From Neolentinus lepideus HHB14362 ss-1 (lineage: Eukaryota > Basidiomycota > Agaricomycetes > Gloeophyllales > Gloeophyllaceae), in the NCBI GenBank assembly GCA_001632425.1, contig KV425570.1, forward strand, positions 400,041-414,394: a stretch of DNA of 14,354 bases. The letters run 5' to 3'. The position numbers and the translations under genes were made by a program. This document shows positions 1 through 14,354 of this stretch, piece after piece (within the stretch, counting starts at the first letter, position 1; each line of letters opens with the position of its first letter). The notes under the pieces were generated by a model. The model ran no database searches, had not been told where the DNA came from, and saw only the letters and a program-made list of their open reading frames with translations.

Positions 1-466
1 GCCCAAGGGGTCCTAACAACTACCCTGATTTTTTCCGCATTTTTAGGCATTGTTTCCGATATTATATGAGCAGCTGAATGGATATCATGAGAGGATCACA
101 TAATATCATGATGCCATCTGACCCCATCAGGTCCCAGGAGCTACCCTGATTTTTTTCCGCATTTTTAGGCATTTTTAGCGATTTTATATGGGCAGCTGAA
201 TCCCATACTGCAGCATTCTATATATATATCAATCTATTTTTAGTACTGGAGGGTTCCCAAATGGGTCCAGGAATATATTCTGATTTATTCCGATTTTCCC
301 ACATTTTCCCGGGCCAGAACCAAGGTCCTAGGCTATTATCACCAATATAGCAGCCTTTTTCCCACACTTGACATCCAAACCCGATTGAGATCTTGATGCC
401 TAGGTGCCAGGCAGTCCAATTCAAACCCAGCCCGGGTTCCGGCGCAATGAATGGTGCAGCCCGGGG
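1..466. other. Non-coding flank left of the inverted repeat
   Basis: This AT-rich stretch lies outside the terminal inverted repeat and is the only DNA in the window that is not part of the retrotransposon nest. It has T-rich runs, a short TA microsatellite near 220-229 and a degenerate repeat described separately. No open frame here shows a recognisable domain, and no splice structure is evident. The frame on the minus strand near 218-469 is short and repeat-derived in composition, so I do not call it a gene. It may be relic repeat or intergenic host DNA. Confidence 0.5.
20..201. repeat. Degenerate ~120-bp direct repeat
   Basis: Bases 20-79 and 141-201 are the same sequence with a few changes. 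Both start with CTACCCTGATT, run through CCGCATTTTTAGGCATT and end in GCAGCTGAAT, at an offset of about 121 bases. A weaker third relative starts near 259 (GGGTCCAGGA, then CTGATTTATTCCG). This suggests a decayed tandem repeat or minisatellite that begins left of the window. The family is not recognised. Confidence 0.6.
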
Positions 467-1960: not shown

Positions 1961-1964
1961 CTGG
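1961..1964 (+). repeat. Target site duplication (right) of the solo LTR
   Basis: CTGG immediately after the LTR terminus, pairing with 608-611. The sequence then resumes as GCACCTTGGAGAAGG, matching GCACCTTGTAGAGGG in element B, so no flanking bases were lost. Confidence 0.75.
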
Positions 1965-3437
1965 CACCTTGGAGAAGGGTTGCGGTGGCAGCTGCACCCT
2001 TGCCAAAGTCGAAGAAGAGGTCTTAGGAAGGTTAGGAGGACAGGCTTGCGCTGTCAGCCTCTCAAAGCCAGCCTTCTGCGTCGCCACCATGTCTTGCACC
2101 ATCCCATGGAGGTCTTCGAGCGACTGATGCATGTTCGCCATATCACGCTCCAAGTGTGTAATGTGAGGGTCGAGGTAGGGAGGTGACATTGGCATCATCT
2201 GGACTAGGATGAGCGAGAAATGAGCTAAGTCCCCACACACATTGGGAAGAGAGTGACTTACAGCTAGAGCTCGAAGAGGAACCACTTTGGGTGCACGAGA
2301 TCGCCAGCGCAGTCCCGGCGCTAGTCATGTCATCAACGTCAGACGCCAGTTGGGATTGCTTGTGCACAGGCTGAGTAAGGGGCGATGGCGGTGATGGAAC
2401 CACCATGACCATGGTGGCGGACCTCGACGTCAGTACTATATGCCAATTAGCACCCAGGGAGCAAGCAACAGAGCTAGGGACATACCAGGTTGCAGGATGA
2501 AATGCTCACACTTTACCTTGGAGGTGTGGCAGTTCTGGCATGCATGCACCAGACCACCACTGACCCAAACAAGACACTGGCATCCCTCTTTGACGCAGCA
2601 TGCACACTGAATTTGACCATGTCATTCCAACTCCTAAACTCTGAAGAAAATGTGATGTACCCTAGATGCACTGTCAGCCGGTGCCCACTGAGTCCAAGCA
2701 ACTCACGACTGAGTCTCCATCTTCGGTGGCTCCACCAGCCTTCTATTGAGTCTCGGTGACTCTACCCTCTTTGTCTCAACCTTCGGCGACTCTGGTTGGG
2801 CCCTCCCTGATCTTTTGACCTTCATTGGCGGTATCTCCACGTATGGCATCAGACGCAGGTGGACTGTCAACGTATCAGACATGCTGCCAGAAGAGCGAGT
2901 GGGCTTCGCCACCAGTCGCTGCATAGGGCAAGGCTTGGGCACAGCAGTAGCGGACGCCGAGGAGCGAGACAGAGCGACTAGAGAGAGGGTTAGGATGGCA
3001 GTATACCATGGCAAAGCCAGGACTCACCAGGTGGAGGACGATCAGAGACCACAGACTGCGCCGGATCCAGGATGGGCATGTTAAGGATGGCCTCAGCCAT
3101 GAGGTCTGAGTTCAGGTTCTGTTCAAATAGGTGGTGGATCAGCTGCAGGTGGGCACACTGCTGAGTCAGCATGATGGTGGAAATGTACCCGATCTAGGAG
3201 ATGCTGGTGTTAGCAGGAACTAGAGGCTTTGAGCATAGCAACATACTGCGGTAGGAATGAGGTCTGCACTGACGGCGAATAGGGCAGTGTCGCAATCAGG
3301 GATGGCCACGACCTTGTCAACGGTGGTGACAAGCTCAGCCCAAGTACGATGAGGAGGGGGAGAAGCCATGCCGAAGTCTGATGAGTAAAGTGAGGGGGAG
3401 GCGATGAAGACGATGACTGAGGACAGTCAGGATTTAA

Positions 3438-3450
3438 GTATGGGGGAGGA
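3438..3450 (+). promoter_or_regulatory. Polypurine tract of element A
   Basis: GTATGGGGGAGGA lies directly against the TG of the LTR fragment that starts at 3451. In Ty3/gypsy elements this RNase H-resistant purine run primes plus-strand DNA synthesis. The upstream context CTGAGGACAGTCAGGATTTAA is shared with element B. Confidence 0.85.
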
Positions 3451-3584
3451 TGATAGGCCTCCAGCGTCACTAGCCTCTGAAAATGCATTTTTGGCATGTT
3501 CGACATGGTGCGGAAAGCACCGAGACCACCAACGTATCTCCGAGCATTCACTGAGCTATGACTCAATACATCGGCGATCCCCGA
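3451..3584 (+). repeat. 5'-end fragment of the 3' LTR of element A
   Basis: The 134 bases begin TGATAGGCCTCCAG as the full LTR does and follow it to ...GATCCCCGA. There the next base starts the 5' LTR of element B with another TGATAGG. In the complete LTR the corresponding sequence continues GGACGCGC. The break is therefore the insertion site of B. The matching right flank is not in the window because B's 3' end is missing. Confidence 0.88.
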
Positions 3585-3629
3585 TGATAGGCCTCCAGTG
3601 TCGCTAGCCTCTGAAAATGTGTTTTCAGC

Positions 3630-4010
3630 GTGTTCGACACGATGCGGAAAGTGCCAAGATCACCGATGAATCATCGAGCATTCACCAAGCTACGACTCAA
3701 TACATCGGTGATCCCCGAGGACGCGCACCTCCGGATACTGACGTCACTGCCGAGCAGTGGACACTTCACCGCGCCGCATGCCTGTCGGTGCTATACCGGG
3801 ACTCAATTCGATGACTCAGGATACGCTGAGGTTGTCGAATGTTGCTTATGCGCTCAGACGATGGAACCGATGGCATCGGCGATGCTTACTCAACACCCTG
3901 CCTCTTCCATACGATATGGCAATCCTTGGAACCTCCAGAACTCAGCCTACTCTCTCCGCAGTGACGAATGGCAGCACTCGGTGCATCTATCAAGGGCCGA
4001 CACATGCTGA
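3630..4010 (+). other. Conserved open frame inside the 5' LTR
   Basis: A frame of 126 codons starts 46 bases into the LTR. The same frame is open at the same length in the 3' LTR (13321-13701). In the solo LTR the downstream two thirds are open to the same stop (minus strand, 1788-1534), with the shared stretch DDSGY.EVVECCLCA. I do not recognise the protein; it has no signal peptide or clear domain. It lies upstream of the putative TATA box, so it would need transcription through the LTR or from an upstream start. It may be chance conservation in a region with few stops. Confidence 0.3.
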
Positions 4011-4450
4011 GTCACTCATATCGGCCTTCCTGACGCAAACCAGCTGATTTTACCGTCCGTCTGACCTTGCAATAACTCGGCATTCATTGGTCGTCATACG
4101 ATAGGAAGCCGTGGGCCCCCGTTTCAGTCCGGCGCCATCGCAACACTCGGTCAGCCCTCCTTATGAAGTTTGAGTTGATGATCATCAAGCACGAGTCATC
4201 AAAACACACCGAGGCGGTGTAGGGGCTCAAGATGGAAGGATCTTCCCTGGGGCGGCAGTTCCTGACCCACCTAGAGTGCTTCGGAATGAGAGCGGTATGC
4301 GGCGGACGATTGGCGAGCAGCTTGGGAGTTTAGCGAGACTCGGCGGCGGGTTTTTTGGTTGTATTTTCTGATTGTAGATGCATGGAGCGTCAGGCTGCCT
4401 CGGACTTAGTGGTTTCTTAGGCTTCGGGTCACTTAGTACTTTAGGCGTCC

Positions 4451-4460
4451 TGTATATTCC
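4451..4460 (+). promoter_or_regulatory. TATA-like box of the LTR promoter (candidate)
   Basis: TGTATATTCC is the best TATA-like site in the downstream half of the LTR. It is kept in the 3' LTR (near 14141-14150) and in the solo LTR (minus strand, near 1090-1098). It would place the RNA start near the ACCTCACAGCTCACATC stretch at about 4489-4500. No transcription data are available, so this is a position-based guess. Confidence 0.3.
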
Positions 4461-4529
4461 TTTCCAGCAGCGAATTTTACCTCACAGCTCACATCTCAAG
4501 TCTCGTTGCATCTGAATTGCGTTCTAAGA

Positions 4530-4548
4530 AGACCTCGGTGTGAGGTCT
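4530..4548 (+). other. LTR hairpin AGACCTC/GAGGTCT
   Basis: A perfect 7-bp inverted repeat, AGACCTC and GAGGTCT, around a five-base loop GGTGT. It recurs unchanged in the 3' LTR (14220-14238). In the solo LTR (1028-1046) the stem is intact and the loop is ACACT on the plus strand. It lies shortly downstream of the putative transcription start, so it may be an R-region RNA stem-loop involved in end formation or strand transfer; this role is inferred from position only. Confidence 0.5.
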
Positions 4549-4968
4549 TGCATTTACCTCTGCGTTTATCGTCTCTATTGCATTCTCCCTGCATCTTCTG
4601 CACTGGTGTTCCCTCTTATTGCATCATCGAAGTCCTCTGATGTGGAGGAACCTGTCAGTCTATCATCCAATTATCGTCCGAGTCCCCAAAAGGGACAGCT
4701 GGTCTAGCTGGGCTCCGGGAACCCTCCGAGAAGCGCTGATTCGGCACCGAGACGCACACAGCAAGAGAGTTAGAGAGTTAGAAGAGTTGAAGAGCGTCCA
4801 GGTCTACTCACAAAGAGATATGCGGTGCCATTTAGTGTTCTGTTTTGCCTTCCTCACCTCTCCCGAGCTTTACCCTTCTGCCCTTCAACTACTGACACTA
4901 TTAGACGGAGTTCCCTCCGCGTTTTCTAGGTGTTTTTGGTGGTTGTTGTGTGTTGTAGCCTGTCATTT

Positions 4969-6930: not shown

Positions 6931-7139
6931 GAAATCGTCACTCTGAAGAAGGTCCCTACACCGAATCAGGTACAGTTCAGCACGGCCATCGAGGAGATCG
7001 AGGACGAAGAAGCACCGATTTTGGTCCTGGAAGAACAGGTGTCACCAACAACAGCGCCTGCGGACGGCTACGTGGTTCCCAACCCATATGACACCTACCT
7101 GAAGTCTCTGAGCCCCGAAGAGGCGCCAGAGCCATTGGT

Positions 7140-7590
7140 TGTTGCAAAGGAGTCGCATGCGATTCGGTCAATCATTGTGGTTGTTGCTCACATCGAACAG
7201 GTAGAATGCATTATAGATCCAGGATGCCAGATCATCGCCATGTCGGAGGCAGTATGCCACTCGATCGGCCTGGAATACGACCCTCAGATCCAACTCCGGA
7301 TGCAGTCGGCGAACCGGTCCATCGATATGTCTCTGGGTCTTGCCCGGAATGTTCCCTTTCAACTCAGCGACGTCATTCTCTACCTTCAGGTTCATGTTAT
7401 CCGTGACCCAGCATATGACATTCTTCTAGGGTGACCCTTCAACGTCATCACCGAGAGTCTGGTACGGAACTTCAGCAATGAAGAACAAACGATCACCATT
7501 TGCGACCCCAACTCCGACGCCATAGTGACAATCCTGACGTTTCCGAGGGGAAGACTGAAGTTTTGGCCCTTTCCGTACAATGACCGCTAA
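7140..7590 (+). pseudogene. Retropepsin-like aspartic protease region
   Basis: The active-site loop is at about 7204-7233 (VECIIDPGCQ), with the catalytic aspartate codon at 7216-7218. The triplet is D-P-G rather than the usual D-S/T-G. Further on, YLQVHVIRDPAYDILLG is the hydrophobic-hydrophobic-G flap end that closes the fold, followed by a TGA (7432) where the family has arginine before PF. The enzyme cuts the gag-pol polyprotein during particle maturation. I believe DPG is common in this basidiomycete lineage, from memory of related elements, but cannot check here. The frame ends at TAA 7588 as the reading frame shifts. Confidence 0.8.
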
Positions 7591-7945: not shown

Positions 7946-9000
7946 CCCTCCCAAAAGAATTCCGAATCGAATGAAACATCACCGGTGACCCCCTCGCTGA
8001 CCTTCCGACACTCAGCCCCCACCCGCGGAGATTCTCACCGACAGGCCGATACACCCAAGAACGCCGTGACGCTCTCCACAAGGTTCACGGCTCCGACTTT
8101 CTGAATGCCGAAGAATTTAAGCTACTGGACGACTTCGTTTGCAAACATGACAAAGCCTTCGCTTGGGATGACTCCGAAAGAGGTCGCTTCCGCTCTGACT
8201 TCTTCCCTCCAGTTCAATTCCCAGTGGTTCCACATACGCCGTGGGTCCAGCGCAACATTCCGATTCCTCCCAGCATTTACAACGAAGTCTGCGCTGTCAT
8301 CAAAAGGAAGATTGCCGCTGGAGTATACGAACCATCCAATGCCTCATATCGGTCAAGGTGGTTCTGTGTCGTAAAGAAAGATGGCAAGTCCCACCGTCTA
8401 GTTCATAGTCTTGAACCGCTGAACGTGGTCACCATACGACATTCTGGAGTCCCGCCGATACCAGAACACATGGCCGAACAATTCGCCGGACAAGCCTGTG
8501 GTGCGATGCTCGACTTATACGTTGGCTATGATGAGCACAAGATTGCGGAGGTCTCTCACGACCTCACCACTTTCCAATCACCCTACGGTGCACTCTGACT
8601 TGTTACGCTGCCAATGGGATGGACCAACTCGGTCCCTATCTTCCATGATGACATTACCCGAATCCTACAACCTGAAATCCCCGAACACACAATCCCCTAC
8701 ATCGACGACGTTCCAGTCAAAGGACCACCGATGTGATATGAACTACCAGATGGATCACATGAATGCCTCGCCGAGAACCCAGGGATTCAGCGATTCATCT
8801 GGGAACACTTCCTAACACTCAATAGGATCGTGCAGCGCATGAAGTATTGCGGAGGTACATTCTCCGGTTTAAAACTCATCTTGTGCGGGCCAGAAGTCAC
8901 CGTCATTGGGCATCAATGCACATATGAGGGACGAATCCCAGATGACAACAAGGTTGCAGTCATACGTGACTGGGGACCCTGCCATAACGTCTCGGAGGTC
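7946..9000 (+). pseudogene. Reverse transcriptase domain
   Basis: The RT fold begins around VPHTPWVQRNIPIPP (8224) and continues with YRSRWFCVVKKDG and RLVHSLEPLN, the fingers motifs of this lineage. The first catalytic aspartate is in MLDLYVGYDE (codon 8512-8514). LPMGWTNSVPIFHDD is the substrate-binding motif, and YIDDV (8698-8712) carries the paired catalytic aspartates. MKYCGGTFSG and VIGHQCTYEGRIPD belong to the thumb. It copies the genomic RNA into DNA in cytoplasmic particles. TGA codons at 7972, 8596 and 8734 interrupt it, but all catalytic residues are present. Confidence 0.93.
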
Positions 9001-9600
9001 CGAGCTTTTCTAGGAACGGTCGGCATCCTCCAAATCTTCATCCGAGATTTTGCACATCGCGCCCACCACCTTGTTCAACTCACATGGAAAGGAGCGGTAT
9101 TTGAATGGGAACCGAAGCATGCAAAGGCGCAAGAGGACCTCAAGATGGCCATTCTCGAATTGCCGGCGCTCCAACCAATTGACTACGAATCCGAGGAACC
9201 AGTTATACTCGCTGTCGACACTTCCTACATCGCCATCGGTCACTTCCTGTGCCAACAAGCACCTGACCATCCCAAGCGACGATTCTATAGCCACTTCGGC
9301 TCGATCACGCTCAACAACCGCGAGCGCCGATTCTCACAGCTGAAACTCGAGATTTACGGCCTATTCTGAAGTCTCCGAGCACTCCAACTCTACCTTATCG
9401 GTGTCCGCAACCTAGTCATGGAAGTCGATGCAAGGTATATCAAGGGCATGCTCCAGAATCCGGACATTGCACCTTTGGCAAGTATCAACCGATGGATTGT
9501 TCTGATCCTTACGTTCCATTTCACCCTCGTTCATGTTCCAGGAGCATCACACGGACCAGACGGTCTCTCTAGAAGGCCGCCACAGCCTGACGATCCACCC
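9001..9600 (+). pseudogene. RNase H domain
   Basis: This follows the RT connection (VRAFLGTVGI and FAHRAHHLVQLT). Catalytic carboxylates are seen as LAVDTS (aspartate codon 9217-9219), QLKLEIYGLF (glutamate codon 9349-9351), MEVDARYIKG (aspartate codon 9427-9429) and GPDGLSRR at the end, with HVPGASHG before it. It removes the RNA strand during DNA synthesis and leaves the polypurine primer. A TGA at 9367 interrupts it directly after EIYGLF, where related elements have arginine. The segment 9600-9795 after it is an acidic linker (DDPPQDDTDDGFDDW). Confidence 0.88.
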
Positions 9601-9795: not shown

Positions 9796-11154
9796 CAAGA
9801 TGAACGACTAAAGCAACTCCCCGAGTGGTTCGACACACTAGAGCGACCTGCCGACATCGAGCCCGAGCACTACGAGTCCTTCATCAAGTTCGCGTATCAG
9901 TTCTTTACATCCGGAGGGAAGCTTTGGCACAAGCATCTGCAAGGCACTCACCAAGTAGTGCTCTTCGGCAAGAATCGAATCATGGCACTCCGAGCCTGCC
10001 ACGACGAGGTAGGCCACCGTGGGATATTCATGATGCGGAGCCTGCTACTTGAATGCTTTTGGTGGCCGTACGCCGGACAAGACATTTCCTGGTACGTCAA
10101 AACATGCCACATCTGCCAGACACGACAGACACGACAGATCCTTATTCCTCTGACTGTCGCAATGCCGGCGCCACTGTTCGCCAAAGTACACACCGATACG
10201 ATGCATATGCCCAAGTCTGGAGGATATTCATATATTATCCAAGGCCAGTGCATCCTTAGTCACTATCCAGAAGCACGAAAGCTACACTCCGAGAATGCGA
10301 CAGCCATTGCCGAGTGGATGTACAAGGACTTACTCTGTCGCTGGTGCGGCCTAGCCGAGATCATCACGGACAATGGCGGCCCCTTCGTCAAGGCATTGGA
10401 CCAGCTCAGCAAACGCTACAAGGTGTATCACATCCGCATTAGTGGCTACAATTCACAAGCGAACGGAGTCGTCGAACACCCCCATTTTGACATCCGACAA
10501 GCTCTCTACAAGGCCACCGACGGAGATCAGTCTCGGTGGTCACAAGTGTTCCACTCCGTCCTGTGGTCCGAACGCATCACCATCTGCTGCCGACTCGGCG
10601 TATCACCTTATTTCGCAGTCACCGGAGCACATCCCCTCATCCCACTCGATATAGTGGAAGCTACATATCTTCAGCCTCCTCCAAACTCATTACTATTGAC
10701 AACAGATCTCATAGCTCGCCGAGCCATCACCCTTCAATGCCGGGAAGAGGACGTTGAGAGACTCCACACGCGTGTCCTACAGGCAAGAGTGGAAGCTGCG
10801 AAACGCTTCGAGCGCAAGCATCGGCACACGATCTGAGACTTTGACTTCAAGCGCAGTGACCTCGTTCTAGTCTGAAACACACAGATCGAGAAGTCCCTCA
10901 ACCAGAAGATGCAACCTCGGTACCTCGGTCCAGTCATAGTAATCACTCGGAACCGTGGCGGCGCATATGTCCTAGCCGAGCTCGATGGAACACTCTTCGA
11001 CCGACCCTTCATGGCATTCCGAGTCATTCCCTACTTTGCACAAATGGCAATTGCGATTCCCGACGAATTCACCGACATTGGACCCGACCATATACGTGAA
11101 ATGGAGGACGCCGATGAACAGGGCGACGATGCCGATAATGAAGCGGAGGTCTAG
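9796..11154 (+). pseudogene. Integrase with GPY/F-like C-terminal module
   Basis: The zinc-binding N-terminus has histidine codons at 10000 and 10015 (HDEVGH) and CHIC at 10105-10116. The catalytic core has D in HTDTM (10195), D in ITDNGG (10369) and E in NGVVE (10474), with 34 residues between the last two. It inserts the cDNA into chromosomes. After TGA codons at 10834 and 10873 comes RYLGPVIVITRNRGGAYVLAELDG, equivalent to the GPY/F module. No chromodomain follows; the protein ends with an acidic tail (EDADEQGDDADNEAEV) at 11154. TGA 9793 lies just before the domain. Confidence 0.9.
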
Positions 11155-11613
11155 ATGAGCCTAATCATTTCTCTCCTCATCATTTCTTTACCCATCCCTT
11201 TGAACTTGCTTTATTTTCTTGTTGGGATATCATTTTCTCGGCGATTCTATGTTGTCTTGCGAACTGAGGACAGTTCAGATTTAAGTATGGGGGAGGAGAA
11301 CACCCTTATATTCAGCTAACCATTTTCACCTTTATTTTCAGCATTTTTGGCAGTTTTCTTTATATGCCTTTCAACGAGATTTTTCGAGTTTCAAAAAAAA
11401 AACACTTTGGAAGTCCAACCCTTCCTTTTCATTTCAAACACTATTTTTTTTATTGATTTTAAAAGAATCCTCACAATTCAAGTCACACAGACATTTTATT
11501 CACGATTTTACTTGTACAAAAAGTACTACCCAACCCCGGAGCATCCACAACAAGCAATGCAAAATGAATACAAGTACAAGGAAGCATTACCGACCATACA
11601 CCGACCGCTGAGC
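11155..11613. other. Spacer between pol and the antisense gene
   Basis: These 459 bases are AT-rich with runs of T and A (near 11393-11402 and 11443-11462). They hold a copy of the polypurine tract at 11285-11297. On the plus strand they would be the pol 3' untranslated region, and on the minus strand the 3' untranslated region of the cargo gene. A plus-strand frame of 120 codons (11347-11709) runs into the antisense exon and shows no domain; I do not count it as a gene. Confidence 0.6.
11285..11297 (+). promoter_or_regulatory. Internal second polypurine tract
   Basis: GTATGGGGGAGGA is identical to the tract next to the 3' LTR. The preceding bases (ACTGAGGACAGTTCAGATTTAA) match those at 13240-13262 except for an inserted T and a G/A difference. 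It lies only 131 bases after pol, where a simple gypsy element would have its tract and LTR. The downstream sequence is not LTR. It may be the ancestral tract, with the cargo added after it, or an auxiliary plus-strand primer site. Confidence 0.7.
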
Positions 11614-13194
11614 CTACGCCGCATCTGCCGAAGGGCCCTCATCTACCTCACCATAGTCCTCGTCATCCTCCTCATCGTTCACCTCCTCCTCATCAGACTC
11701 ATCCTCTGATTCCACAGCGGCAGCAGCACTCGGCGTTGAAGACGAGGCCACCTTCACAACCAAACCAGGCGCAGTCGGATGAGCCGGCACCTTGTAGAGG
11801 GGTTGCGGCGGCAGCTGCACCCTGGCCGAAGTTGAAGCGGAGGCCCTAGGAAGGTTAGGAGGTCAGCCTTGCGCCGTCAGCCTCTCAAACCCAGCCTTCT
11901 GCGTCACCGCCATGTCTTGCACCATCCCATGGAGGTCTTTGAGCGATTGATGCAAGTTCGCCATATCACGCTCTAGGTGCGTGATGCAAGGGTCGAGGTA
12001 GGGAGGCGACATCGGTGTCATCCGGACTAGGATGAGCGAGGAATGAGCTAAAGTCCCCACGCACATCGGGAAGAGAAGGGACTTACAGCTGGAGCTCGAA
12101 GAGGACCCGCTTTGAGTGCACGAGATTGCCAGTGCAGTCCCGGCGCTAGTCGTGTCATCGACGTCAGAAGCCAGATGAGATCGCTTGCGTACAGGCTGAA
12201 CAAGAGGCAACGGCGGCGATGGAACTACTGTGACTGTGGTGGCAGACCTCGACGCCAGTACTATATGCCGATTAGCATTTAGGCGGCATGCTACGGAGCT
12301 AGAGACGTACTGGGTTGCAGAACGAAGCGCTCGCACTTCACCTTGGAGGTGTGGCAGTTCTGGCACGCATGCGCTGGACCACCACCAACCCGAATGAGGC
12401 ACTGGCAGCCCTCCTTGATGCAGCGCGCACACTAAATTGGACCAAGTCATTTCATCTCCTAAACCCGAAGACAAGAGCGACATACCCTCGATGCACCGTC
12501 AGTCAGTGCCCACTGAGTCTGAGCAACTCGGGACTGCATCTCCGTCTTTGGCGGCTCCACCGGCCTTCTATCAAGTCTCGGCGACTCTACTCGCTTCATC
12601 TCAACCTTCGGTGACTCCGGTTGGACTCTTCCTGACCTTTCGACCTTCATTGGCGGTATCTCCACATAGGGCGTCAGACGTGGGCAGACTGTCGATGTAT
12701 CAGAAGCCCCGCCAGAAGAGCGGGTGGGCTTCACCACTGGTCACGGTATAGGGTGAGGCTTGGGCATCGCAGCAGTGGGCGCCGAGGAGCGAGACGGAGC
12801 GACTAGAGAGAGGGTTAGGATGGCTGTATACCATGGCAAAGGCAGGGCTCACCAGGTGGAGGACGATCGGAGACAACAGAATGCGCCAGATTGAGGACAG
12901 GCATGTTGAGAATGGCCTCGGCCATGAGGTCCGAATTTAAGTTTTGCGAGAACAGGCAGTGGATCAGCTGCAGGTGCGCGCGCTGCTGACTTGGCATCAC
13001 AGTGGAAATGTACCTGATCTAGAGGCCGCCGGAGTTAGCAGGAACTAGTAGTGTCGCGCATAGCGACTTACTGCGGTGGGGATAAGGTCCACGCCGACGG
13101 CGAATAGGGCGGCGTCTCGATCAGGGATGGACACAACCTCGTCAACGGCGGTAACAAGCTCGGCCCAAGTACGACAGGGAGGAGGAGAAGCCAT
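11614..13194 (-). pseudogene. Antisense six-exon cargo gene, copy B (Zn2Cys6-like, two in-frame stops)
   Basis: ATG at 13194-13192 (A at -3, G at +4), TAG at 11616-11614. Inferred exons: 13072-13194, 12853-13018, 12486-12802, 12311-12431, 12087-12260, 11614-12026. Introns of 53, 50, 54, 50 and 60 bp have donors GTAAGT, GTGAGC, GTATGT, GTACGT, GTAAGT and AG acceptors; introns 1, 2 and 4 have GCTAAC, CCTAAC and GCTAAT branch-like sites. Exon lengths total 1314 bases, exactly 438 codons. Protein: N-terminal helical part (TWAELVTAVDEVV), a proline/charged linker, a cysteine cluster at residues 203-235, a serine-rich stretch, a coiled-coil-like segment (about 310-350) and an acidic tail (406-431). 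TGA codons at 12743-12741 (residue 117) and 11865-11863 (residue 355) break it; copy A has CGA at the first. Function unknown; a nuclear regulator is a guess from layout. Confidence 0.8.
12333..12431 (-). other. Zn2Cys6-like cysteine cluster in exon 4 of the cargo gene
   Basis: Exon 4 opens with CARC and shows cysteines spaced CX2CX6CX11CX2CX6C over 33 residues, the canonical spacing of the fungal binuclear zinc cluster, plus one extra cysteine between the second and third. The lysine-rich half (CQNCHTSKVKC) is second, whereas in GAL4-type domains the basic half comes first. All six cysteines are kept in copy A (2508-2606). DNA binding is therefore plausible but not assured; a protein- or RNA-binding zinc module is an alternative. 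Confidence 0.65.
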
Positions 13195-13262
13195 GCTGGA
13201 GTCTGAGGAGTAAAGCAAGGGAGGGGTGATGAAGACGATGACTGAGGACAGTCAGGATTTAA

Positions 13263-13275
13263 GTATGGGGGAGGA
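13263..13275 (+). promoter_or_regulatory. Polypurine tract of element B
   Basis: GTATGGGGGAGGA directly abuts the TG of the 3' LTR at 13276. It primes plus-strand synthesis. On the minus strand the same bases begin the pyrimidine-rich 5' leader of the antisense gene, whose ATG follows 81 bases from the LTR boundary. Confidence 0.9.
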
Positions 13276-14260
13276 TGATAGGCCTCCAGCATCGCTAGCC
13301 TCTGAAAATGCATTTTCAGCGTGTTCGACACGATGCGGAAAGTGCCAAGATCACCGATGAATCACCGAGCGTTCACCGAGCTACGACTCAATACATCGGC
13401 GATCCCCGAGGATGTGCACCTCCGGATACTGACATCACCACCGAGCAGTGGACACTTCACCGCGCTGCATGCCTGTCGGTGCTATACCGGGACTCAATTC
13501 GATGACTCAGGATACGCCGAGGTTGTTGAATGTTGCTTATGCGCTCAGATGATGGAACTGATGGCATTGGCGATGCTTACTCAACACCCTGCCTCTTCCA
13601 TACGATATGACAATCCTTGGAACCTCTGGAACTCAGCCTACTCTCTCCGCAGCAACGAATGGCAGCACTCGGTGCATCTATCAAGCGCTGACACATGCTG
13701 AGTCACTCATATCGGCCTTCCTGACGCAAACCAGCTGATCTTACCTTCCGTCTGACCTTGCAATAACTCGGCGTTCATTGGTCGTTGTACGATAGGAAGC
13801 CGTGGGCCCCCGTTTCAGTCCGGCGCCATCGCAACACTCGGTCAGCCCTCCTTATGAAGTTTGAGTTGATGATCATCAAGCACGAGTCATCAAAACACAC
13901 CGAGGCGGTGTAGGGGCTCAAGATGGAAGGATCTTCCCTGGGGTGGCAGTTCCTGACCCACCTAGAGTGCTTCGGAATGAGAGCGGTATGCGGTGGACGA
14001 TTGGCGAGTGGCTTGGGAGTTTAGCAATACTTGGCGGCACATTTTTGGTTGTATTTTCTGATTGTAGACATATGGAGCATTAGGTTATCTCGGACTTAGT
14101 GGTTTCTTAGGCTTCGGGTCACTTAGTACTTTAGGTTTCCTGTATATTCCTTTCCAGCAGCGAATTTTACCTCACAGCTCACATCTCAAGTCTCATTGTG
14201 TCCGAATTGCGTTCTAAGAAGACCTCGGTGTGAGGTCTTGCATTTACCTCTGCGTTTATC
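13276..14260 (+). repeat. 3' LTR of element B, truncated
   Basis: It matches the 5' LTR from TGATAGG to CTCTGCGTTTATC (14260) and then stops; the 5' copy continues GTCTCTATTGC. About 396 bases of the LTR end are missing. Nine unrelated bases (14261-14269) separate it from the right inverted repeat. It retains the TATA-like box, the hairpin at 14220-14238 and the 126-codon frame at 13321-13701. Read on the minus strand, it lies directly upstream of the antisense cargo gene and would hold its promoter. Confidence 0.9.
13321..13701 (+). other. LTR open frame, 3' copy
   Basis: Same 126-codon frame as at 3630-4010, with the same start and stop. Amino-acid differences between the copies are mostly those produced by C/T or G/A changes (for example T/M, P/L, A/T, D/N). 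No stop has arisen in either copy although both lie in CpG-decayed DNA, but few CGA codons occur in this frame. Coding status uncertain. Confidence 0.3.
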
Positions 14261-14269
14261 CAGCCGGTT

Positions 14270-14354
14270 CTGTAATAATAATGTATTACATGTCTAATAT
14301 TTTAACAAACCCTTATGCAATACCCAGTAATGTTTTAAGCGTAATGTATTAATG
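14270..14354 (-). repeat. Right 85-bp terminal inverted repeat
   Basis: Reverse complement of 467-551 with three mismatches. It starts CTGTAATAATAATG on the plus strand and ends GTATTAATG at the last base of the window. Because the window stops here, the repeat may continue outward and the flanking target duplication cannot be seen. Confidence 0.8.

What the first reader, a model, noticed from the sequence alone, without database searches (positions are those of the whole stretch)
11614..13194. A spliced antisense gene carried between pol and the 3' LTR
Seen: on the minus strand, six exons joined at five GT-AG introns of 50-60 bp give exactly 438 codons from a good-context ATG to TAG, and each junction keeps frame. 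Known: retrotransposons lose introns on the sense strand because their RNA is spliced before reverse transcription. Inferred: because the gene is antisense, its splice signals are invisible in the sense genomic RNA, so the element can carry an intron-containing gene through retrotransposition. An intact, intron-bearing antisense cargo of this type is unusual and I know of no description of this one.
Basis: partly seen in the sequence, partly recalled or inferred. Interest (0 to 1): 0.88.

Follow-up and report, generated by a model that had tools for sequence, protein, structure and literature searches.

The report
Intron-bearing antisense gene in fungal retrotransposons
A family of jumping genes in the wood-rotting mushroom Neolentinus lepideus carries, written backwards between its own genes and its end repeat, an extra gene that still has introns and is kept by selection, although the copy in this window is broken by two stop codons.

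Summary
The window lies in the genome of Neolentinus lepideus (Gloeophyllales) and holds a decayed Ty3/gypsy element. The gene is real in the family: another copy reads open over 436 codons and equals public protein NEOLEDRAFT_1176777; splice dinucleotides are kept well above the expectation from intron divergence; dN/dS is 0.23-0.36 in 21 of 21 copy pairs, about as low as in integrase. A second, abundant family and a third (one locus) carry a diverged version at the same place: 13 of 16 integrase loci of this lineage have it downstream on the opposite strand. The proteins share a six-cysteine cluster of Zn2Cys6-like spacing whose first Cys directly follows a phase-0 intron. A lone gene on contig C9 shares the cluster, that intron and a 41-codon first exon, so it may be a host relative. 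Best reading: a selected, intron-bearing antisense accessory gene, probably a DNA-binding regulator. Antisense accessory genes are known (Grande, Retand, Boty, HBZ); five conserved introns and the C9 relative make it a new variant. No RNA evidence was available.

The parts
13072..13194 (-). exon 1 of the antisense gene (41 codons, ends in phase 0)
13019..13071 (-). intron 1, 53 nt, gtaagt...ctag
   Evidence: GT in 10 of 10 copies, AG in 9 of 9 that have the site; the site is deleted in the C125 copy
12853..13018 (-). exon 2
12803..12852 (-). intron 2, 50 nt (phase 1)
   Evidence: 10 of 10 copies keep GT and AG
12486..12802 (-). exon 3; holds TGA at codon 117 (12743-12741) in this copy
12432..12485 (-). 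intron 3, 54 nt (phase 0), acceptor directly before the first Cys codon of the cluster
   Evidence: GT in 8 of 9 copies (TT in the C58 copy), AG in 9 of 9
12311..12431 (-). exon 4, CX2CX6CX11CX2CX6C cluster
12261..12310 (-). intron 4, 50 nt (phase 1)
   Evidence: 9 of 9 copies keep GT and AG
12087..12260 (-). exon 5
12027..12086 (-). intron 5, 60 nt (phase 1)
   Evidence: 8 of 8 copies keep GT and AG
11614..12026 (-). exon 6, likely coiled coil and acidic C-terminal tail; TGA at codon 355 (11865-11863) in this copy; final TAG 11616-11614
   Evidence: long helix at low confidence, acidic tail read by eye
11495..11500 (-). AATAAA, 114 nt past the stop codon, possible polyadenylation signal of the antisense transcript
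   Evidence: function not tested
11263..11297 (+). inner polypurine-tract box, 32 of 35 bases identical to the outer one without gaps
   Evidence: (D6)
13241..13275 (+). outer polypurine-tract box, directly before the 3' LTR
9796..10836 (+). integrase part of pol (Pfam Integrase_H2C2)
   Evidence: relatives
6931..7434 (+). aspartic protease part of pol
8737..9369 (+). RNase H region of reverse transcriptase
3585..4965 (+). 5' LTR (end approximate, from the shared repeat)
13276..14260 (+). 3' LTR, 930 of 985 compared bases identical to the 5' LTR; interrupted after about 14260 by another repeat
1963..3369 (-). second, truncated copy of the same antisense gene, upstream of the 5' LTR

Best explanation
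This is one decayed copy of an accessory gene that belongs to a lineage of Ty3/gypsy elements in Neolentinus lepideus. The gene lies antisense between pol and the 3' LTR, has five short introns, and is held by selection as a protein gene (shown by comparison of copies). It is read from a start in or next to the 3' LTR (81 bp lie between ATG and LTR), spliced, and translated into a protein with a helical N-terminal part, a six-cysteine cluster of Zn2Cys6 spacing, a coiled coil and an acidic tail (cluster shown; transcription, splicing and zinc binding inferred). The introns survive mobility because the genomic sense RNA, which is copied back into DNA, carries only their complement (inferred; introns are present at 45 of 45 examined places). 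The protein most likely acts in the nucleus as a DNA-binding regulator of the element's own LTR or of its targeting, as proposed for other antisense accessory genes (inferred). A lone gene on contig C9 that shares the cluster and two intron positions points to capture of a host gene with its introns (inferred).
For: Gene model; public 436-aa protein identical to the spliced C12 copy. Splice sites kept above expectation in the window family (40 of 41 donors, 40 of 40 acceptors; 29.2 and 28.5 expected) and the second family (29 of 30, 30 of 30; 18.7 expected). dN/dS 0.23-0.36 (21 pairs) and 0.21-0.46 in the second family (21 pairs), against 0.29-0.48 for the integrase part (6 pairs). Frames shifted by one or two bases give 0.84-2.05 (10 pairs each). 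Same place and opposite strand at 13 of 16 integrase loci of the lineage. Cysteine cluster in family one and at C9, family two and, with a longer first loop, family three; coiled coil and acidic tail read from the translations. Phase-0 intron directly before the first Cys in families one and two and at C9; in family three a 56-nt GT-AG intron fits at that place.
Against: No RNA evidence was available. This copy has two stops, most copies are broken, and only 1 of the 5 copies that span the whole gene (A, B, C, D, I) is open throughout; in the second family 1 of 7 examined is open from ATG to stop. The cluster scores just under the Pfam Zn_clus cut-off (20.4 against 21), the match is of its second half to the first half of the profile, and no Zn_clus match was listed for the second family. 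The fold model is poor (mean pLDDT 46.5). Outside the cluster the families are hardly alike: N-terminal parts of families one and two reach their score in 85 of 1000 shuffles, of family one and C9 in 745 of 1000, of family two and C9 in 0 of 1000. Profile matches cover the cluster only, with hhalign probabilities of 78%, 80% and 17%. One sense-strand frame also shows dN/dS 0.30-0.47, which I explain by its sharing the wobble column; it is higher than the antisense value in 10 of 10 pairs.
Confidence: 0.72

Rival explanations
1. A host gene was trapped once by chance and is carried passively as a relic, with no use to the element.
For: Two stops in this copy, most copies damaged.
Against: dN/dS well below 1 over 42 copy pairs of two families and about as low as in the integrase part; kept at 13 of 16 loci over three diverged families.
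Confidence: 0.06
2. The antisense transcript, not the protein, is the working part, for example as a regulatory or silencing RNA.
For: Antisense RNAs with such roles are discussed for other elements (passages of PMC7264820). Not excluded as an extra role.
Against: Selection is on codons, reading frame and splice sites, which an RNA-only role does not explain.
Confidence: 0.07
3. The introns were gained after the gene entered the element, or the lone C9 gene is a tamed element gene rather than the donor.
For: Direction cannot be read from one genome; by phase and place, intron 2 of the window family and intron 5 of the second family have no counterpart in the other.
Against: C9 shares the 41-codon first exon, its phase-0 intron and the phase-0 intron before the first Cys, and none of the 50 integrase matches listed lies on contig C9.
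Confidence: 0.3
4. The six-exon model is a chance string of GT-AG pairs.
For: GT-AG pairs of 50-60 nt are common in any sequence.
Against: Conservation of sites, frame and codon pattern over copies and families; identical public protein.
Confidence: 0.01

Closest known systems
Boty elements of Botrytis cinerea with antisense gene brtn (Zhao et al. 2011, seen only as cited in PMC7264820, PMC8365987, PMC4227169)
   Same: Fungal LTR retrotransposon with an extra antisense gene; [quoted passage not shown]
   Different: Its sequence and intron content were not available here; the Boty-like gag-pol described in PMC4227169 has a CHROMO domain (passage). No relation was tested.
Plant antisense accessory ORFs: Grande gene23, RIRE2, Retand, PvRetro13 (passages and one section of PMC7264820, passages of PMC11963269)
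   Same: Same place and strand; kept in most copies; nuclear or DNA-binding role proposed; for Grande a promoter upstream of gene23 is reported.
   Different: Retand genes carry the TRP28 domain, which our Pfam scans did not list; no word beginning with intron occurs in the main text of either paper.
HTLV-1 HBZ (passages of PMC3185765)
   Same: Spliced antisense gene read from the 3' LTR, encoding a transcription regulator.
   Different: HBZ is a bZIP protein whose ATG lies in an exon within the LTR; here five introns inside the coding region and a cysteine cluster.
Fungal Zn(2)Cys(6) transcription factors (Pfam PF00172)
   Same: Six cysteines with the family's spacing (recalled), coiled coil, acidic tail.
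   Different: Score just below the curated cut-off and the second half of the cluster aligns to the first half of the profile.
Laboratory retrotransposition markers of the his3AI type (recalled, not from a call)
   Same: An antisense, intron-bearing gene inside an LTR element, where the orientation of the intron decides whether it is lost.
   Different: There the intron is turned to be spliced from the element's sense RNA and so is lost; here the introns run with the antisense gene and are kept.

Membership tests
LTR retrotransposons with an antisense accessory gene between pol and 3' LTR (aORF-3R) | Gene antisense, between pol and 3' LTR | tested here: met
LTR retrotransposons with an antisense accessory gene between pol and 3' LTR (aORF-3R) | Present in most copies of the family | tested here: met
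   13 of 16 integrase loci of the lineage; of the other three, two match only part of integrase and one keeps only the edge of the region
LTR retrotransposons with an antisense accessory gene between pol and 3' LTR (aORF-3R) | Conserved about as well as the other element proteins | tested here: met
   (compared with the integrase part only)
Retand lineage | TRP28 domain (PF04195) in the antisense protein | tested here: not met
   not among the Pfam matches
Retand lineage | Reverse transcriptase phylogeny | not tested
   no tree was built
Boty / brtn | Sequence relation to brtn | not testable with these tools
   sequence not in hand; protein searches listed only Neolentinus proteins, within their word-sharing limits
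HBZ-type antisense genes | Spliced transcript starting in the 3' LTR | not testable with these tools
   no RNA data
HBZ-type antisense genes | bZIP domain | tested here: not met
   no bZIP in the Pfam listing
Fungal Zn(2)Cys(6) cluster proteins | CX2CX6CX5-12CX2CX6-8C spacing (recalled definition) | tested here: met
   family one, C9; family two; family three has CX2CX8C in the first half and does not meet it
Fungal Zn(2)Cys(6) cluster proteins | Pfam PF00172 score above its cut-off | tested here: not met
   20.4 against 21 bits, E 0.00055; not listed for the four second-family proteins at E up to 1; C9 13.8 bits
Fungal Zn(2)Cys(6) cluster proteins | Zinc and DNA binding | not testable with these tools
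   needs bench work

The most novel reading that the evidence does not exclude
An LTR retrotransposon lineage captured a host regulatory gene together with its introns, by taking it in antisense, and has kept it through many rounds of mobility and the split into at least three families; a possible host form of the gene still stands at C9. This would be a natural case in which antisense placement shields introns from loss, and a route by which intron-bearing host genes become mobile.
Probability: 0.45. Interest if true: 0.78.

Novelty: new variant of a known kind. Interest (0 to 1): 0.62.

Why it matters
Antisense accessory genes of LTR elements are known, but their origin and function are called unknown in the review seen here. 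A gene with conserved intron positions, a recognisable cysteine cluster, many natural copies and a single lone relative in the same genome makes both questions testable: where such genes come from (host capture with introns) and what they do (regulation of the element). It also shows that a multi-intron gene can persist in an element that moves through RNA.

Tried and rejected
An intact gene in the window was rejected: two in-frame TGA. The public model of this copy (NEOLEDRAFT_1178226, 400 aa) is exactly the window read with a longer intron 2 (12852-12737) and an extra 45-nt intron (11890-11846), which skip both stops. The extra intron's donor is GT in 4 of the 8 copies with letters there (A-D), or 4 of 7 without copy E, whose sequence is no longer homologous at that point, so I take it for a rescue by the gene finder; real use in this copy is not excluded. 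A suspicion that the C9 gene was frame-broken (note) was dropped after a six-intron model read open for 375 aa; I chose its splice sites by hand and no public model was checked. Relatives outside Neolentinus: none among the proteins listed (17 and 46 scored only the candidates sharing most words), none in viral contigs by the second-family alignment (the window family was not scanned there). Solved structures: three weak matches, E 0.16-0.66. The fold model was too poor for a fold search, so none was run. Generic Zn-cluster similarity as the reason for the C9 match was checked: none of the 24 Zn_clus places listed for the genome is in the list of places matched by the 436-aa protein, while C9 is. 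A distant gypsy locus (L047) showed no polypurine box or cysteine pattern by simple pattern search over 3.5 kb. Other element lineages were not examined for antisense genes.

Full report
What the window is. The window is G000:C20:400041-414394 of a 33.8-Mb, 168-contig genome. Proteins encoded in that genome equal NEOLEDRAFT_1176777 (C12 copy) and, with the public exon choice, NEOLEDRAFT_1178226 (the window copy) of Neolentinus lepideus HHB14362 ss-1, a Gloeophyllales mushroom. The window holds a Ty3/gypsy-type element: 5' LTR about 3585-4965, gag-pol pieces, integrase at 9796-10836 and 3' LTR from 13276. Gag-pol is split over several open stretches, so I take it as broken. The two LTRs agree at 930 of 985 compared bases; 49 of the 55 differences are transitions and 22 are of CpG type, so the copy is not young and has decayed as methylated repeats do (inference).

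The observation. All five introns and the exon sum are right, but the frame has TGA at codons 117 and 355. The public model of this copy, a 400-aa protein, is the window read with a longer intron 2 and an extra 45-nt intron that pass the stops. The extra intron's donor is GT in A-D but not in E, F, I and the C8 copy (E is not homologous there).

Other copies of the same gene. A DNA search of the genome gave 12 matches, two of them in the window; the tool calls such counts lower bounds. I aligned 11 rows (ten loci, the C8 locus in two halves; the 48-nt match on C168 was left out). Donor GT is kept at 40 of 41 places and acceptor AG at 40 of 40 outside the window copy, against 29.2 and 28.5 expected if these bases had changed like the intron interiors. 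Exceptions: the C58 copy has TT at intron 3, and in the C125 copy the acceptor of intron 1 is deleted. An intron is present at 45 of 45 places with exon on both sides. Copies B (C58), D (C40) and I (C13, 73% identical) have the same total exon length as the window; C (C12) lacks one codon; E, F, G, H and J are truncated or interrupted. Several introns differ in length between copies. Of the five copies that span the gene, only C12 is open over the whole length. dN/dS (Nei-Gojobori, codons with stops left out) is 0.23-0.36 in 21 of 21 pairs of seven copies, against 0.84-2.05 for the frames shifted by one or two bases (10 pairs each). On the sense strand two frames give 0.80-1.47; one, which shares the wobble column, gives 0.30-0.47, above the antisense value in 10 of 10 pairs. 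The integrase part gives 0.29-0.48 in 6 pairs of four copies. So the antisense gene has been under selection as a protein gene about as strong as that on integrase.

A second family. Elements with 65-68% DNA identity in the integrase region carry between two polypurine boxes a region of about 2.3 kb that neither tblastn nor blastn matched to the window gene. One such region has 29 matches in the genome; I aligned seven copies. They encode, antisense, a gene with five introns of 50-58 nt; GT is kept at 29 of 30 and AG at 30 of 30 places outside the reference copy, 18.7 expected for each, and the intron is present at 34 of 34 places with exon on both sides. The C76 copy is open for 588 codons from ATG; the other six are broken in the frame I used. 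dN/dS is 0.21-0.46 in 21 pairs. The public protein set lists 28 matches to this family at E up to 1, all named as N. lepideus. The protein has the cluster CX2CX6CX11CX2CX6C and, as in the window gene, the first Cys codon directly follows a phase-0 intron. Profile comparison of the two protein families gives E 1.7e-5 (probability 78%) over 37 columns, the cluster alone; the N-terminal parts are not clearly alike (85 of 1000 shuffles reach the score). With five introns in 1,314 coding bases, an intron falls on a given place by chance in about 0.4% (inference).

A third family. One locus, C59:104500-108500, has integrase, a polypurine box and, antisense, a cluster of the form CX2CX8CX11CX2CX6C. 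A 56-nt GT-AG intron in phase with the open frame before it fits directly before the first Cys. Further on I read, by eye, a coiled-coil-like stretch and an acidic tail. It is single-copy by DNA search and its first exons were not settled.

Distribution. I grouped the 50 matches into sixteen integrase loci of this lineage (best pieces 54-100% protein identity). Thirteen have one of the three antisense genes downstream on the opposite strand. The spacing is 781 bp in 4 of 4 window-family loci and 503-505 in 6 of 8 second-family loci; the other two give 453 (C41) and, across an insertion with unread bases, 3,084 (C59); the third family gives 457. Of the three loci without it, C30 and C7 match only part of integrase and C40:1378-2410 keeps only the edge of the region before other repeats. 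The gene is thus a standing part of the lineage. More distant gypsy elements (22-31% identity) were not surveyed, but for one pattern search (L047).

A lone relative. The 436-aa protein also matches contig C9 weakly (E 0.011). There a gene that I modelled by hand with six GT-AG introns (50-59 nt) reads open for 375 aa, with a first exon of 123 nt (41 codons, as in the window gene), a phase-0 intron after it, and a phase-0 intron directly before CX2CX6CX11CX2CX6C; it goes on with acidic, proline-rich and coiled-coil-like parts. Profile comparison with the window family gives E 1.4e-5 (probability 80%), with the second family 0.0014 (17%), both over the cluster. Shuffle tests: window against second-family cluster 0 of 1000, window against C9 cluster 0, second-family against C9 cluster 2; N-terminal parts of C9 0 of 1000 with the second family but 745 of 1000 with the window family. 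A search with its first 162 residues found only itself, none of the 50 integrase matches lies on contig C9 and no polypurine box was found in the 3.5 kb. None of the 24 Zn_clus places listed for the genome is among the matches, so the link is not a generic one. C9 may be the host relative from which the accessory gene came, or a tamed element gene; one genome cannot decide.

How it most likely works. Shown: a selected antisense protein gene with conserved introns. Inferred: transcription from in or near the 3' LTR, splicing, translation to a protein that binds zinc and DNA and acts on the element's expression or targeting. The cluster narrowly misses the Pfam Zn_clus cut-off (20.4 against 21 bits), so I call it Zn2Cys6-like, not a member. 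The AlphaFold2 model is poor (mean pLDDT 46.5), with four N-terminal helices mostly near pLDDT 80 and one long helix at 312-351 below 60. An AATAAA lies 114 nt past the stop on the minus strand, with two more downstream. Introns stay because the RNA that is copied back is the sense strand (inference from the known logic of retrotransposition).

What is known. From passages and one section of PMC7264820 and passages of PMC11963269: antisense accessory ORFs between pol and 3' LTR occur in Grande, RIRE2, Retand and PvRetro13 and in the fungal Boty elements; a nuclear or DNA-binding regulatory role is proposed; origin of most and function are called unknown. From passages of PMC3185765: HTLV-1 HBZ comes from a spliced antisense transcript of the 3' LTR. 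Passages of PMC8365987 and PMC4227169 mention brtn; Zhao et al. 2011 itself was seen only as a citation. No word beginning with intron occurs in the main texts of the two plant papers. Searches for an intron-bearing antisense gene in such elements (listings only) and for N. lepideus retrotransposons (one paper listed) showed no description, but subscription papers are missing from the library. I therefore call it a new variant of a known kind.

Noticed in passing
window 1963-3369 and 612-1960: A second, truncated copy of the antisense gene lies upstream of the 5' LTR and is cut at about 1961 by an LTR in inverted orientation (612-1960).
   Followed up: partly
window 3449-3582: The first 134 bp of the LTR are present twice in tandem before the 5' LTR, next to the polypurine box of the upstream copy.
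   Followed up: no
window 11263-11297 and 13241-13275; L034 2865 and 5193: The polypurine box stands at both ends of the antisense gene in two families. Within a family the two boxes agree at 34 of 36 (window) and 32 of 36 (L034) aligned places, between families at 26 of 35 to 30 of 36, which suggests duplication at capture and later homogenisation, or that both are used.
   Followed up: partly
window 14261-14354, L025 up to 5222: The 3' LTR is interrupted after about 14260; a further LTR piece follows some 4.4 kb on. The sequence 14270-14354 is the inverse of 467-551 and, by eye, a similar one follows the C8 copy.
   Followed up: partly
window 2-289: Short degenerate repeats of 121-134 bp spacing at the window start.
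   Followed up: no
window LTRs: 22 of 55 LTR differences are CpG-type transitions, 49 of 55 are transitions, as in methylation-driven decay.
   Followed up: partly
public record NEOLEDRAFT_1178226: The public gene model of the window copy avoids both stop codons by extra intron sequence; such models can hide decayed element genes in annotation.
   Followed up: yes
L043, gene start at 1058: Single-copy, seven-exon gene on contig C9 with the same cysteine cluster and two shared intron positions.
   Followed up: yes
C59:104500-117500: Two different families of the same element lineage lie within 13 kb of each other.
   Followed up: no
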